Below, piece by piece: positions 17-20,571 of a stretch of DNA of 32,502 bases. The DNA is from a virus. The translations under genes and the position numbers were made by a program. The notes beneath the pieces are model-generated. The model saw only the letters and a program-made list of their open reading frames with translations. It was not told the DNA's origin and made no database searches. Numbering within the stretch: position 1 is the first letter of the stretch; every line of letters starts with the position of its first letter. The stretch lies in the IMG/VR virus record IMGVR_UViG_3300027861_000124, positions 1 through 32,502 of that record. One strand, given 5' to 3'.

Positions 17-48
17 ATGCTATACGCAGTATGCTATACGCTATACGC
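17..48. repeat. Three short direct repeats GCTATACGC
   Basis: GCTATACGC occurs at 19-27, 33-41 and 40-48; the last two overlap by two bases. The first two copies extend to ATGCTATACGC. A GC-rich, CGC-rich tract follows to about 77. The cluster resembles iterons in spacing, but it is at the very edge of the window and no replication gene is adjacent, so no role is assigned. Confidence 0.6.
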
Positions 49-105
49 TTCGCGTTGCTCCGCTCCGCACCTCGCGGATAGTTGGGGTTGACAACACGTA
101 TCCAC

Positions 106-145: not shown

Positions 146-359
146 CCGGGAAAAAGCCTAAACCTTTCACGGAAAATATAACGCAGTACTATTACTTATA
201 TATATACTATACGTGTTTGCACGCATATATACAACCGGAAACCTGGAACGACAGGGGGGCTGGGTAAATAAAAACAGTTTACCAATTTAAAAAGTTTTTA
301 AAATTGTATGACGCTACCCCATACCCCTATATTTGTAACAACTTTTTTTTAGGCCCAGG

Positions 360-403
360 GCGACAATAGGTAGTTATATATAATAGTAGTAGGCTAACGT
401 CGC
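360..403 (+). promoter_or_regulatory. Conserved stem-loop element, copy 1
   Basis: GCGAC (360-364) can pair with GTCGC (399-403). A 2x2 internal loop follows, then TAG (367-369) pairs with CTA (394-396). The loop carries the core ATAGTAGTAGGCT at 383-395. Positions 362-403 match 34 of 42 bases of 19651-19692 without gaps, although the two sites are 19 kb apart. Six T residues follow (404-409), and the next start codon is at 424. It could be a promoter, a leader-RNA structure or an attenuator. The TATAAT at 379-384 lacks a properly spaced -35 box. Confidence 0.6.
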
Positions 404-423
404 TTTTTTAATTTTATTTAAAC

Positions 424-687
424 ATGCGTAATCATACTCGTATGGCACAAAAATTATCCGCTACGGCAAGAAGAGATAAAGCGGCAAGAGACAAAGCGTA
501 TGCAATGACTCCTGACAGAAAGGCTAAAAAGGCCCATGCAGAACGTGAGGCTAGGGCTAATCCGTCTGCGGCTAAAGGTAAAGACTTTGATCATAAGGAC
601 CAGAGATGGGAAACACCTGCTAGGAATAGAGGTAATGACGGAGAGGGAACTAAGAAAGAAGGTGGTAAAAAATATAACACCGGGTAA
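424..687 (+). CDS. Small basic protein with DHK...RN motif
   Basis: This is an 87-residue, very basic protein rich in Lys, Arg and Ala, with no hydrophobic segment. The N-terminal half (about residues 8-50) looks helical and charged. The C-terminal half has G-K-D-F-D-H-K-D followed by R-N-R-G-N and a Lys/Gly-rich tail. That DHK then RN spacing resembles short basic proteins often found among marine phage structural genes, which look like trimmed HNH-type domains. The resemblance is an impression and no second catalytic His is clear. The ATG at 424 follows an A/T-rich leader and lies 21 nt after the structured element at 360-403. It is the first gene of the run and precedes the fiber gene by 12 nt. 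Function is unknown; a nucleic-acid-binding or virion role is possible. Confidence 0.6.
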   Translation: MRNHTRMAQKLSATARRDKAARDKAYAMTPDRKAKKAHAEREARANPSAAKGKDFDHKDQRWETPARNRGNDGEGTKKEGGKKYNTG

Positions 688-6044: not shown

Positions 6045-7652
6045 ATGGAATTTAATCTACCAAGTCAAATCGTAAAAGATTTGAATTTCGGCGATAAGGC
6101 ACGAAATAAAATATTGTCAGGCGTTTATAAATTATCCGACGCAGTGAAGTCAACATTAGGAGCTTCAGGAAAATGCGTAATATACGAGGACGCAATGGGC
6201 AGGCCGGTGATAACAAAAGACGGGGTAACCGTTGCAGAAAGCGTAGTCTTAATGGACCCGGTCGAGAATATAGGTGCAACCCTAATAAAGGAAGCAGCTA
6301 ATAATACAGTGAGAGAAGCGGGTGACGGTACTACTACAGCTACCGTTCTCGCATCTTCATTACTAACAGGACTAAACGAATACAAGGGTGAAGAAAAAAT
6401 TAGGAGTATTAAAGACGGCATTCAAGAATGTTATAAAGAAATTGTGGATTATCTTGACAATGCCAGTATACCAGTTGAAGGCGACATGCTTAAACAGGTT
6501 GCTTATATCAGTTGTAATAATGACAAAAGTCTTGGAGATAAAATTGGAGAGGCTTTCGAAAAAGTTGGAAAGAATGGCGTCGTTTTAATGGAGGACTCTG
6601 AAACAAATGATACGTATGTAGATTTTGTGGAAGGGACCCAATTCAATGCAGGTATAAAATCAGTGCACTTATTAACAGATAAAGATAAAGGCACAGCTGT
6701 ACTTGAAAATCCATACGTTTTAATAGTAAGTTCAAACATACCAAGCGTGCGTCGTATACAAAGTATATTAGAGCATGTAGTTAAAACAAAAAGAGCATTA
6801 CTTATTGTAGCCCCAATGGACCAGCAGCCATACGCTACATTGCTAGCAAATAAGGTTAAGGGTAATATTAAAGTAAACATTGTTGATCTACCTGGCTTTG
6901 GGCCGACCAAGCAAGATACAATTGAAGACTTGGCTATATTGACAGGTGCTACTGTTGTGAACGAAGAACTTGGGGATGATTTAGATCTAATCGATCCGGG
7001 TGTTTTAGGGGAAGTAATAAAATCTGTTACCGACAGCAAGAACACTACATTGCAAATAAAAGAAAACACGGCAGACTTATCTGAAAGGATAACTGAGGTG
7101 AACAATAAGATAGAAAAAGAAACAAACAGCTATATCAAGAAAAAGCTTGAAGAGCGTTTGTCTATGCTAACAGGTAAAGTTGGTGTTGTTTACGTAGGTG
7201 CTGATTCCGCAGTTGAGCTAAAAGAAAAGAAAGATAGAGTTGAAGACGCAATTCATGCAACTAAAGCCGCTTTGCAAGAGGGTATTATACCTGGAGGTGG
7301 AACTGCTTTATTAAATGCTGCTCAACTTATAGAGTCTAAAAACGATGGCTACAGTATATTATTAAAAGCCATACAGGAACCATACAAAATAATCCTAGGT
7401 AATGCCGGGTATTCTGATTACGAATTTCCAAAAGCCAAATCAGAAGCAAGTGAAGCTAAAGGAGCTAAGGAAGACTGGGTAGGTATCGGGGTGGATGTAA
7501 CCTGCGGTTGTTATAAAAGAATGATAGAAAGCGGTATTATAGATCCCGTGTTAGTAACCAAGTCTGCATTAAAGAATGCGATAAGTGTTGCTACCACAAT
7601 TATATCAGCTGATTGTATAATCTCAAATGTAAGATCTCTTGAAGGCAATTAA
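6045..7652 (+). CDS. groEL: Phage chaperonin GroEL
   Basis: 535 residues, full length for a group I chaperonin (E. coli 548). ATPase residues are kept: D59 in T-K-D-G-V (E. coli D52), G-D-G-T-T-T-A-T at 93-100 (D94 = D87) and D401 in E-D-A-I-H-A-T (D398), followed by G-G-G-T-A-L. The early loop reads T-L-G-A-S-G-K in place of T-L-G-P-K-G-R. In the apical domain the positions matching the substrate-binding residues Y199, Y203 and F204 are I204, H208 and L209. The C-terminus stops after S-L-E-G-N, so the Gly-Gly-Met tail is missing. It should form an ATP-driven ring that folds phage proteins, perhaps the capsid or fiber proteins. GroES follows with a 14-nt overlap, the reverse of the usual groES-groEL order. 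Confidence 0.95.
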   Translation: MEFNLPSQIVKDLNFGDKARNKILSGVYKLSDAVKSTLGASGKCVIYEDAMGRPVITKDGVTVAESVVLMDPVENIGATLIKEAANNTVREAGDGTTTATVLASSLLTGLNEYKGEEKIRSIKDGIQECYKEIVDYLDNASIPVEGDMLKQVAYISCNNDKSLGDKIGEAFEKVGKNGVVLMEDSETNDTYVDFVEGTQFNAGIKSVHLLTDKDKGTAVLENPYVLIVSSNIPSVRRIQSILEHVVKTKRALLIVAPMDQQPYATLLANKVKGNIKVNIVDLPGFGPTKQDTIEDLAILTGATVVNEELGDDLDLIDPGVLGEVIKSVTDSKNTTLQIKENTADLSERITEVNNKIEKETNSYIKKKLEERLSMLTGKVGVVYVGADSAVELKEKKDRVEDAIHATKAALQEGIIPGGGTALLNAAQLIESKNDGYSILLKAIQEPYKIILGNAGYSDYEFPKAKSEASEAKGAKEDWVGIGVDVTCGCYKRMIESGIIDPVLVTKSALKNAISVATTIISADCIISNVRSLEGN

Positions 7653-7896
7653 TTACTACATCGTTATAGATAAGATAAAGGAAGCACCGAAAACGGTTGC
7701 TGGCCTAGAATTAACTGAAACACAGAACACAGACATTAGGTACTTAAAAGCCGAGGTTATAAGCGCTGGTGATAAGGTTGATTATATAAAAGAAGGTAGT
7801 GTTGTTAGGTATGACAAACACGCGGGTCACGGGATAGAATGGAATGACAAGATGTATCATGTTATTACTATAAATGATATAGTGCTAGTCGAATGA
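7639..7896 (+). CDS. groES: Phage co-chaperonin GroES, short form
   Basis: 85 residues (E. coli 97). It starts at a TTG inside the end of groEL; no in-frame ATG exists nearby, and the TTG gives the expected first strand (I-N-Y-Y-I-V-I-D-K-I). Residues about 15-35 correspond to the mobile loop, with G-L-E-L in place of the E. coli G-I-V-L that docks on GroEL. The segment A-E-V-I-S-A-G-D-K-V-D-Y-I-K-E-G-S-V-V runs straight from one core strand to the next. The roof hairpin present in bacterial GroES is therefore absent, as also known for T4 gp31. Its last 4 nt overlap the next start (ATGA). It is expected to cap the phage GroEL ring, or possibly host GroEL. Confidence 0.85.
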   Translation: MKAINYYIVIDKIKEAPKTVAGLELTETQNTDIRYLKAEVISAGDKVDYIKEGSVVRYDKHAGHGIEWNDKMYHVITINDIVLVE

Positions 7897-18134: not shown

Positions 18135-19589
18135 ATGGCAGGATTTGCAACCGCGCCGGCTACATTAGCCAATTTAGCGCACTTAACACCACGCCCGGTA
18201 AAAGGTTTGTTTGGAGACAACTACCTATCTTTAGCGGACATGGATTTTACACAACAATTTTTACCTGAGGTATACGAAAAAGAAATCGAGCGTTATGGGA
18301 ACAGAACAATCACAGGATTTTTACGTATGGTCGGAGCTGAGATGCCTATGGCGTCGGATCAAGTAGTTTGGTCAGAGCAAGGAAGATTACATATCGCTTA
18401 TGATAATGTAACAACTCAAGCTGCAGCGAACCAAACAATATCTTTACCAGATGCAACAACATCGCCAGACGGTAAAGCGCCTTTACTAGGGCCAGGCATG
18501 ACAATAGTATTAGCTAAAGGTAATATAACGGCAAAAGCTTTCGTAAAAGCAATCGTTACACCTCAGGTTGGAACTAATGTAACATACGACATCGTAGTAT
18601 ATGATACTGCCAATGGACAATTGCCAACTGGTTTACATACAGAAACAGGTGTTAGTACATTCGTATATGGTTCTGAGTATGGAAAAGGATCTAGTTTAGC
18701 TGGTAATTCAGTTGACGCTTCTTTCACAACTTTCAGTAACAAACCAATCATTCTAAGAGACAAGTATGCCGTTAACGGATCAGATGTTGCTCAAATTGGA
18801 TGGGTTGAAGTTACTACTGAAATTGGAACTGGAGGATACCTATGGTACTTAAAGTCTGAACACGAGTCTCGTATTCGTTTTGAAGATTACTTAGAAATGT
18901 CAATGGTTGAAGCTACTGATGCTCAAAGTACTATTACTGATGCTTCTGGAGCAACTATATCAGGTATGCAAGGTTTATTTGATGCACTAGAAACAAGAGG
19001 TTTAGTATTTAACGACGCTGATTTTGACGGTGCGTCTTCTCCTACTGCAGGACTTGGAGCATTTGATACTATATTACAAGAGCTTGATAAGCAAGGAGCA
19101 ATTGAAGAGAACATGATGTTCTTAGATCGCGAAACTGCATTGAGCATTGATAATATGCTGGCGCAACAAAATTCTTACGGAACAGGAGGAACATCTTACG
19201 GTGTATTCGAAAATTCAGAAGAAATGGCGTTGAACCTAGGATTCTCAGGATTCCGTAGAGGATCTTACGATTTCTATAAGACTGACTGGAAATATCTAAA
19301 TGATTCTACAACTCGTGGAGGTATTACAGATATATCTGGAGTAATCGTTCCAGCAGGAACATCTACTGTATATGACCAACAATTAGGACAGAACATCTCA
19401 CGACCATTCTTACACATCCGTTATAGAGCTTCAGAAGCTGATGACAGACGTTTGAAATCTTGGGTAACTGGATCAGTTGGTGGAAACTACACAAGTGACG
19501 AGGATGCAATGAATGTTCACTTCCTATCGGAAAGAACTTTGTGTACTCAAGCAGCTAACAACTTTGTACTGTTAAAAAGAACAGTATAA
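18135..19589 (+). CDS. Major capsid protein, HK97-fold type
   Basis: 484 residues, following the scaffold-like gene by 8 nt and closed by a strong terminator. Features include an N-terminal region M-A-G-F-A-T-A-P-A-T-L, a helical spine with I-E-R-Y-G-N-R-T-I-T-G-F-L-R, the segment D-T-I-L-Q-E-L-D-K-Q-G-A-I-E-E-N-M-M-F-L-D-R-E, and a compact C-terminal beta region. The length and gene order fit an HK97-fold capsid protein of a podovirus-type phage without head protease. Codon choice differs from the neighbours: CGN codes for 11 of 20 Arg and ATC/ATT for most Ile, while AGA and ATA dominate elsewhere. That points to selection for very high expression. Confidence 0.8.
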   Translation: MAGFATAPATLANLAHLTPRPVKGLFGDNYLSLADMDFTQQFLPEVYEKEIERYGNRTITGFLRMVGAEMPMASDQVVWSEQGRLHIAYDNVTTQAAANQTISLPDATTSPDGKAPLLGPGMTIVLAKGNITAKAFVKAIVTPQVGTNVTYDIVVYDTANGQLPTGLHTETGVSTFVYGSEYGKGSSLAGNSVDASFTTFSNKPIILRDKYAVNGSDVAQIGWVEVTTEIGTGGYLWYLKSEHESRIRFEDYLEMSMVEATDAQSTITDASGATISGMQGLFDALETRGLVFNDADFDGASSPTAGLGAFDTILQELDKQGAIEENMMFLDRETALSIDNMLAQQNSYGTGGTSYGVFENSEEMALNLGFSGFRRGSYDFYKTDWKYLNDSTTRGGITDISGVIVPAGTSTVYDQQLGQNISRPFLHIRYRASEADDRRLKSWVTGSVGGNYTSDEDAMNVHFLSERTLCTQAANNFVLLKRTV

Positions 19590-19599
19590 TAAGTTTATT

Positions 19600-19647
19600 G
19601 TAATGATTACCCTCGTTGAATCTACGGGGGTAGTTATTACTTTTATT
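19600..19647 (+). terminator. Intrinsic terminator after the capsid gene
   Basis: A 17-bp stem pairs 19600-19616 with 19624-19640, including three G-U wobbles, around a 7-nt loop (TGAATCT). It is followed by TTTTATT. It starts 10 nt after the capsid stop codon. This is the strongest hairpin I found in the window and should end or trim the capsid transcript. Confidence 0.85.
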
Positions 19648-19648
19648 A

Positions 19649-19692
19649 GTGACATTAGCTAGTTATATTAAATAGTAATAGGCTATCGTCAT
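19649..19692 (+). promoter_or_regulatory. Conserved stem-loop element, copy 2
   Basis: GTGAC (19649-19653) pairs with GTCAT (19688-19692) with one G-U. A 2x2 internal loop and a TAGC/GCTA stem (19656-19659 with 19682-19685) follow, the same architecture as copy 1. The outer C-G pair of copy 1 is T-A here, a compensated change. The core ATAGTAATAGGCT is at 19672-19684. It begins just after the capsid terminator and lies 31 nt before the next start codon, so it is well placed as a promoter or leader-RNA structure for the downstream tail genes. Confidence 0.65.
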
Positions 19693-19722
19693 ACATTATT
19701 AACATTTATATCATATTATATT

Positions 19723-20571
19723 ATGGCTAACAAGAAAGCTACAGCAAAAAAAGTTGAGGTTGCACCTCAGGAAGTGGTTGAAAAAGTAACACAACCAAAA
19801 GTAGAAGCACCTAAAAAAGAGGAGCCAAAAAAAGACGAGTGGGTAATCAAAGATAGATTGTACGAATTAACAAGAACAAAACCACTTGTTTTCACATTAC
19901 CTACAGCGCATAGTAGGAAAAAAAGTTTATTGTATTTTGACGAAGAGCTAGGATACCAAAGAGAATTAAGATACGCTACTAACCAGCGATCTTGTTTTGT
20001 AGAGGAGCAGAAGGGACAAATAGTTATGGGACGCATCGTGTTTAGAGACGGCGTGCTTAGAGTGCCGAAAGAAAATGTTGCGCTACAAAAATTATTATCT
20101 TTATATCACCCAGCTTTAAAATCTAATATATACGAAGAATACAAACCAGCTCAGCAAGCAAGTAATGAGGTTGACTGGATTGAGTTCGAATTACAAGCAT
20201 TGAACCTTGCTAAAACATTATCTGTTGAAGAGGCAGAAGCTATTTTACGCGTTGAAATGGGAGCGACAGTAACAGAGCTTTCATCTTCTGAAATTAAAAG
20301 AGATGTATTAATTTTTGCTAAAAGGAATCCAAATTTATTCTTACAATTAGCTACAGATGAGAATACACAATTAAGGAGCTTCGGGGCAAAAGCTGTTGAA
20401 CAAGGGATACTAACATTATCACAAGACCAAAGAACGTTTACTTACGGTTCTAACGGAAGAAAAATAATGACAGTGCCGTTTGACGAGCATCCTTACTTTG
20501 CTTTATCTGCTTTCTTTAGAACAGATGAAGGTATGGAAGTATACAAGGCAATTGAGAAAAGACTAAACTAG
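19723..20571 (+). CDS. Conserved structural-region protein
   Basis: 282 residues. Residues 1-42 are a low-complexity Lys/Glu/Pro/Val tail (M-A-N-K-K-A-T-A-K-K). The rest contains blocks familiar from marine phages at this position: L-L-Y-F-D-E-E-L-G-Y-Q-R-E-L-R-Y-A-T-N-Q, V-F-R-D-G-V-L-R-V-P-K, S-S-S-E-I-K-R-D-V-L-I-F-A-K, and V-P-F-D-E-H-P-Y-F-A-L-S-A-F-F. The function is not known to me. Its place between capsid and connector genes suggests a head-tail junction or minor capsid role. It begins a transcription unit, with a terminator and the structured element upstream. A stem-loop containing the same 13-nt core follows directly at its stop codon. Confidence 0.6.
   Translation: MANKKATAKKVEVAPQEVVEKVTQPKVEAPKKEEPKKDEWVIKDRLYELTRTKPLVFTLPTAHSRKKSLLYFDEELGYQRELRYATNQRSCFVEEQKGQIVMGRIVFRDGVLRVPKENVALQKLLSLYHPALKSNIYEEYKPAQQASNEVDWIEFELQALNLAKTLSVEEAEAILRVEMGATVTELSSSEIKRDVLIFAKRNPNLFLQLATDENTQLRSFGAKAVEQGILTLSQDQRTFTYGSNGRKIMTVPFDEHPYFALSAFFRTDEGMEVYKAIEKRLN

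What the first reader, a model, noticed from the sequence alone, without database searches (positions are those of the whole stretch)
19649..19692. A 44-nt structured leader element repeated 19 kb apart, with a near-identical core
Positions 362-403 and 19651-19692 match at 34 of 42 bases without gaps. Both fold as a 5-bp outer stem, a 2x2 internal loop, a 3-4-bp inner stem and a loop of about 20-24 nt. The outer C361-G402 pair becomes T19650-A19691, and the symmetric A-A mismatch (366/397) becomes T-T (19655/19686). Each copy sits 20-31 nt before a start codon. This is what a phage-specific promoter, a 5' leader RNA or a processing site would look like. I know of no described element with this sequence.
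Basis: partly seen in the sequence, partly recalled or inferred. Interest (0 to 1): 0.82.

Follow-up and report, generated by a model that had tools for sequence, protein, structure and literature searches.

The report
Phage regulator's binding site, not RNA
The repeated element is a DNA docking site that marine Flavobacteria phages keep at the start of a few gene blocks, and the protein that very probably reads it has the same site sitting across its own start codon, which points to a previously undescribed self-controlled switch for turning on phage genes.

Summary
The two copies are real (34/42 identical, none expected by chance), but they are not an RNA element. The full unit is a ~58-bp imperfect DNA palindrome, AAAAGTGYGACRWTAGS-(AT-rich)-GGCTAWYGTCRCACTTTT. 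I found 166 distinct copies in related marine phage contigs, 1-4 per near-complete genome; 73 of 76 lie between genes although 89-96% of each genome is coding. The two arms vary without compensation on either strand (pairing is below shuffled expectation), and at one locus the element occurs in both orientations or is cleanly absent, so a hairpin RNA is not supported. In all 42 contigs encoding a ~207-aa helix-turn-helix (HTH) protein, encoded beside a phage sigma factor, the palindrome spans that protein's start codon. Large contigs without the protein have no sites. At the late operon the palindrome precedes a conserved promoter-like motif by about 23, 33 or 43 bp, i.e. in one-helical-turn steps. 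Best explanation: this is the operator of an autoregulated phage transcription factor, probably a late-gene activator working like (but unrelated to) phi29 p4. Binding and direction of control are inferred; the regulator gene lies outside the 32.5-kb fragment, and the link comes from relatives.

The parts
352..411 (+). Palindromic site, type A (core GAC...GTC 362-401), in front of the rightward late operon
   Evidence: HMM match 56.5 bits, E 3e-15; same position relative to the late operon in relatives
423..447 (+). Promoter-like motif CATGCGTAATCATACTCGTATGGCA, 24 nt after the palindrome core
   Evidence: Position weight matrix hit of 22.2 bits, the only hit above 11 bits in the window; conserved at site A in 29 distinct sequences. 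Promoter function is inferred.
442..687 (+). First gene of the late operon, probable true start ATG 442 (MAQKLSATARR...)
   Evidence: ORF 424-687; relatives start at the equivalent of 442
19600..19640 (+). Intrinsic terminator after the major capsid-type gene
   Evidence: 17-pair stem and T tail, 0.0 expected in shuffles
19648..19699 (+). Palindromic site, type B (core GAC...GTC 19651-19690), between the capsid gene terminator and the next virion gene
   Evidence: HMM match 45.7 bits, E 6e-12; present in both orientations or absent at this spot in relatives
18135..19589 (+). Virion structural gene, phrog_13704, at the major capsid position (upstream neighbour of site B)
   Evidence: PHROG hit E 2e-97
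19723..20571 (+). Gene downstream of site B (phrog_34748, function unknown)
   Evidence: PHROG hit E 5e-22

Best explanation
Each copy is a ~58-bp operator: two inverted half-sites (AAAAGTGYGACRWTAGS) facing each other across an AT-rich centre, read as double-stranded DNA. The protein controls itself, because its own operator covers its start codon (GCTA-ATG-TCRCA). It also acts at a few other boundaries: upstream of the late operon (window copy 1), beyond the capsid terminator (window copy 2) and at single or paired sites in the early region. At the late operon it most likely activates, contacting RNA polymerase bound at the GYGTRAKNATA promoter-like motif, which lies at one of three distances differing by about one helical turn. 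Shown here: the palindrome, its distribution, its link to the HTH gene, the DNA-type constraint and the ~10-bp steps. Inferred: that this protein binds it, that it activates late genes and represses itself, and that the window's own phage carries the gene, which is off the fragment.
For: (1) All 42 viral contigs found with the HTH protein carry the palindrome across its start codon (the weakest, L152, is scored as G040). In an independent set found through the sigma factor, 34 of 35 HTH genes with upstream sequence have it, and the 35th (G052) has a diverged palindrome in the same place. (2) All 25 HTH-encoding contigs of 50 kb or more that I fetched have sites, 1-4 each. Three contigs of 52-58 kb without the HTH gene and the ~50-kb stretches scanned of three isolate genomes have none. 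(3) A half-site-pair scan of G052 returns one hit, exactly at its HTH gene; scans of HTH-less genomes and of shuffled sequence return none. (4) 73/76 sites are intergenic in genomes that are 89-96% coding. (5) Arms do not covary: at variable positions pairing is mostly at or below chance, e.g. z -6.9 at position 4, 0.822 vs 0.833 shuffled; GAC and the G of TAG are invariant. (6) Both orientations occur at one locus. (7) Distance from palindrome to the promoter-like motif is 21-24, 33-36 or 42-47 nt with 25-32 and 37-41 empty; periodicity peaks at 10.5 bp. (8) The C-terminal domain matches HTH models in 31 of 35 members.
Against: No binding or expression data exist. Co-occurrence is confounded by shared ancestry, since these phages form one group. 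The window's own fragment lacks the HTH gene, and its two nearest contigs reaching the sigma gene (G003, G008) end 0.7-1.2 kb upstream of it without showing the gene; a complete relative with extra genes there (G049) does carry it. HTH matches are weak and mostly below curated cut-offs, and no solved structure matches the fold. The phasing rests on few independent events. Nothing distinguishes activation from repression directly. Site B shows both orientations and is often absent, so its role is unclear.
Confidence: 0.78

Rival explanations
1. The same DNA operator, but the HTH protein is purely a repressor: it shuts its own gene and delays the late and early units, in the manner of dispersed repressor sites.
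For: Start codon inside the site is typical of autorepression; several sites sit inside early transcription units.
Against: At site A the palindrome lies wholly upstream of the promoter-like motif, and its distance to that motif changes in ~10-bp steps, which repression by overlap would not need.
Confidence: 0.25
2. A structured 5' leader RNA or RNA processing hairpin.
For: Copy 2 folds well as RNA (z -4.3); outer arms AAAAGTG/CACTTTT could form a long stem; it lies shortly upstream of a start codon in both window copies.
Against: No covariation on either strand; copy 1 folds no better than shuffles; no Rfam match at the element; occurs inverted at the same locus; at site A it lies upstream of the promoter-like motif, so probably is not transcribed from it.
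Confidence: 0.05
3. A recombination, replication-origin or genome-end/packaging site (palindromic arms and an AT-rich centre, several copies per genome, contig ends often nearby).
For: Long inverted repeat with AT-rich core; contig ends lie near copies in several contigs; clean presence/absence at site B.
Against: Spacer length varies from 39 to 42 bp; copies sit at transcription boundaries; different site types lie near contig ends in different contigs, and some contigs run straight through each type, so no fixed end; the linked protein resembles HTH regulators, with no recombinase family match above cut-off.
Confidence: 0.06
4. A bidirectional intrinsic terminator insulating neighbouring units.
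For: A-run and T-run flank the arms (AAAAGTG...CACTTTT), giving a hairpin-plus-T-tract look on both strands.
Against: Arm variants are not compensated; the most conserved bases are GAC and TAG inside, with a loop too long for an intrinsic terminator; a true terminator already precedes copy 2; no terminator called at copy 1.
Confidence: 0.03

Closest known systems
Phage phi29 regulatory protein p4 and its binding sites (early/late switch)
   Same: A small phage early protein that binds imperfect inverted repeats with outer A-tracts between early and late promoters, activates the late promoter by contacting RNA polymerase and represses early ones (PMC3100819). Here too the sites are inverted repeats with outer A-tracts near the early/late boundary, a few copies per genome.
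   Different: p4 recognises CTTTTT-15 bp-AAAATG, essentially one base plus A-tracts through an N-hook (PMC3100819); here about 10 well-conserved bases per half-site over a ~58-bp palindrome and a predicted C-terminal HTH. No p4 match by sequence or fold. The operator spans the regulator's own start codon.
Stoperators of cluster A mycobacteriophages
   Same: Repressor-binding sites distributed across one phage genome and read by one phage protein (PMC9283540).
   Different: Stoperators are asymmetric and bound by a monomeric repressor (PMC9283540 title and abstract); here few, long, symmetric sites and no lysogeny gene seen.
Lambda-type operators and autoregulation (from general knowledge)
   Same: Autoregulated HTH protein acting at its own and at distant phage promoters.
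   Different: Site length, half-site sequence and protein family differ; no CI-like domain hit.
Group 2 marine Bacteroidetes phages of Nishimura 2017 (relatives of Cellulophaga phi38:1 and phi40:1) and Elemovirus
   Same: Likely the same broad phage group: shared virion gene order and GroEL (PMC5332604).
   Different: No operator or regulator of this kind is described in the passages read; the isolates scanned lack detectable sites. Elemo gp54 is only a remote relative of the HTH protein.

Membership tests
phi29 p4-type regulator/operator | Protein homologous to p4 | tested here: not met
   Profile search of solved structures and fold search give no p4 entry
phi29 p4-type regulator/operator | Inverted-repeat sites with outer A-tracts between early and late promoters | tested here: met
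   Outer AAAA/TTTT arms; site A next to the late operon, often facing leftward early genes
phi29 p4-type regulator/operator | Activates late promoter by RNA polymerase contact | not testable with these tools
   Only indirect: ~10-bp steps between site and promoter-like motif
Mycobacteriophage stoperator | Asymmetric site, many copies | tested here: not met
   Palindromic, 1-4 copies, both orientations at site B
Structured leader RNA / RNase III-type hairpin | Compensatory changes in the stem | tested here: not met
   0.822 paired vs 0.833 shuffled on +; 0.686 vs 0.706 on -
Structured leader RNA / RNase III-type hairpin | Match to a known Rfam family | tested here: not met
   No match at the element
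Intrinsic terminator | GC-rich stem, short loop, T tract | tested here: not met
   Not called at either copy; called next to copy 2 instead
Phage promoter (site itself) | Fixed strand relative to the gene it drives | tested here: not met
   Inverted at the same locus in a set of relatives
HTH DNA-binding regulator (partner protein) | Helix-turn-helix domain | tested here: met
   HTH_11 in 31/35 members, best E 1.4e-5, weak; C-terminal helices in AlphaFold model, mean pLDDT 88
HTH DNA-binding regulator (partner protein) | Binds the proposed operator | not testable with these tools
   Needs gel shift or footprinting

The most novel reading that the evidence does not exclude
A new family of phage transcription switch, with a DNA-binding protein of undescribed N-terminal fold, in which one protein bound at 1-4 long palindromes per genome represses itself across its own start codon, represses early units and activates the late operon together with a co-encoded phage sigma factor, possibly by bridging sites.
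Probability: 0.4. Interest if true: 0.62.

Novelty: new variant of a known kind. Interest (0 to 1): 0.52.

Why it matters
Little seems to be known about transcription control in the phages of marine Flavobacteria. This gives a defined, testable regulator, its operator and a candidate late promoter motif for a large, mostly uncultured group, and a consensus that locates early/late boundaries in metagenomic contigs. The start codon being inside the operator in every case examined ties site and protein together unusually tightly.

Tried and rejected
RNA element: rejected by lack of covariation and by inversion. Rfam scan of the window: only a chance hit elsewhere. Near-identity search of known phages: nothing. 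BLAST of a consensus element against isolate phages: only chance hits in unrelated phages. Fold search against solved structures: nothing significant. Fold search against viral models: one match, A0A516MIB4, whose owner could not be named. tblastn of the HTH protein and of its diverged G052 relative against isolate phages: none. Hosts: only three bacterial genome contigs carry HTH relatives, all short MAG contigs and therefore probably viral; I could not scan bacterial genomes for the site itself. Mobile-element reading: at site B the element is flanked by short TTATTA repeats in some contigs but not others, so no consistent target duplication was seen. Operator or late-promoter descriptions in the literature for these phages: none found in the searches made.

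Full report
WHAT IS THERE. The window is a 32.5-kb fragment of a podovirus-like phage whose virion proteins resemble those of Flavobacterium elemo, Cellulophaga and Maribacter phages at under 60% identity, with its own groEL/groES-like genes. Related marine genomes were earlier assigned to Flavobacteriaceae phages, some with GroEL (PMC5332604).

EXTENT. Scanning 2.9 million viral contigs for the core gave 47 stretches, and a looser form of the pattern gave 97. Aligned, these show that the reported 44 nt is the centre of a ~58-bp imperfect palindrome with outer arms AAAAGTGY and RCACTTTT. An HMM from these sites finds 1-4 copies in each near-complete HTH-encoding contig. I collected 166 distinct sites. 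G-A-C and the G of TAG are invariant in both half-sites, and the GAC-to-GTC span is 39-42 bp, mostly 40.

DNA, NOT RNA. If the arms paired in RNA, changes would be compensated. Across 166 sites pairing at the variable positions is mostly at or below shuffled expectation. For the exact RNA structure drawn by folding, 86 distinct sites pair at 0.822 against 0.833 shuffled on the + strand and 0.686 against 0.706 on the - strand, with every shuffle reaching the observed value. Relatedness normally inflates this statistic, so the negative result is firm. Between the capsid gene and its neighbour the element is forward in 7, inverted in 3 and absent in 70 of 80 loci, and a further group carries it inverted. 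Orientation independence fits a symmetric protein-binding site.

WHERE THE SITES LIE. 73 of 76 sites are intergenic in genomes that are 89-96% coding. Four settings recur: (A) in front of the rightward late operon (window copy 1); (B) after the terminator of the capsid gene (window copy 2; terminator 19600-19640); (C) across the start codon of a ~207-aa gene; (D) singly or in pairs about 130-170 bp apart among small early genes.

THE PARTNER PROTEIN. The gene at setting C encodes a protein with a C-terminal HTH (weak HTH_11 match in 31 of 35 members) and a well-predicted model (pLDDT 88) without a solved relative. It normally lies within about 2 kb upstream of a phage sigma-70-type factor gene. 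All 42 contigs recovered with this protein carry the palindrome over its start codon, the ATG sitting inside the right arm as GCTA-ATG-TC. Starting instead from the sigma factor, 34 of 35 HTH genes with upstream sequence have it; the exception, G052, has a diverged palindrome in the same place, the only hit in its contig by a half-site-pair scan that finds none in shuffled sequence. Large contigs lacking the protein (G037, G050, G051) and the stretches scanned of three isolate genomes have no site. The group is related by descent, so co-occurrence alone is not proof, but the fixed position over the start codon is hard to explain otherwise.

HOW IT PROBABLY WORKS. Downstream of site A lies a conserved motif, GYGTRAKNATAY...GTAT, just before the first late gene; in the window it is at 423-447. 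In most complete genomes examined its strongest match is at site A, and a weaker copy follows the sigma gene in several. The distance from palindrome to motif takes values of 21-24, 33-36 and 42-47 with nothing in between, even inside one family of related promoters; the periodicity is strongest at 10.5 bp, p 5e-5 against uniform distances, though related sequences weaken that figure. Turn-wise spacing is what a DNA-bound activator touching RNA polymerase from one face requires. I therefore commit to an autoregulated operator/regulator pair that most likely activates late genes, with pure repression as the main alternative. Binding itself is not shown.

LIMIT FOR THE WINDOW ITSELF. The HTH gene is not on the fragment. 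The nearest contigs that reach the sigma gene (G003, G008) stop 0.7-1.2 kb upstream of it. A contig whose two ends together make up one HTH gene, hence probably circular and complete (G049, 66,615 bp, sigma 77% identical to that of G003), has the HTH gene ~1.8 kb upstream with its site, and a relative with 79% capsid identity (G035) has the full set.

RELATION TO KNOWN SYSTEMS. It works most like phi29 p4, a phage early protein that binds inverted repeats with A-tracts and switches early to late transcription (PMC3100819), but is not a member: neither the protein nor the recognition sequence matches. It is not a stoperator (asymmetric, monomer-bound; PMC9283540). I found no description of it in the papers searched.

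Noticed in passing
window 424-442: The annotated-looking ORF start at 424 is probably wrong; relatives start at ATG 442, and 424-441 belongs to a promoter-like motif.
   Followed up: yes
window 18-50: Three close repeats of GCTATACGC; a similar GCTATACA motif sits beside the paired early-region sites in relatives and may be an early promoter.
   Followed up: no
window 6045-7896: Phage-encoded groEL- and groES-like genes in the late region; relatives carry them too.
   Followed up: no
G012, G017, G020, G024, G009, G022, G016, G033 and the window start: Contig ends seem to fall near copies of the site more often than expected; the early small-gene region may be hard to assemble or hypervariable.
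   Followed up: partly
G035:40896-, G013:62313+, G014:46823+, G029:39584-: A weaker second copy of the promoter-like motif lies just after the sigma factor gene.
   Followed up: partly
G010:2440-2516 and equivalents: A conserved hairpin GTCGGAAGAGTAGACTCCG lies between paired early-region sites.
   Followed up: no
L119:18956-19822 (elemo gp54): A distant homolog of the HTH protein, apparently with two HTH motifs, in cultivated elemo phages, in which no palindrome was found; a tractable starting point for experiments.
   Followed up: partly
L166-L245, gap after the capsid gene: The element at site B is cleanly gained or lost between close relatives and occurs in both orientations.
   Followed up: partly
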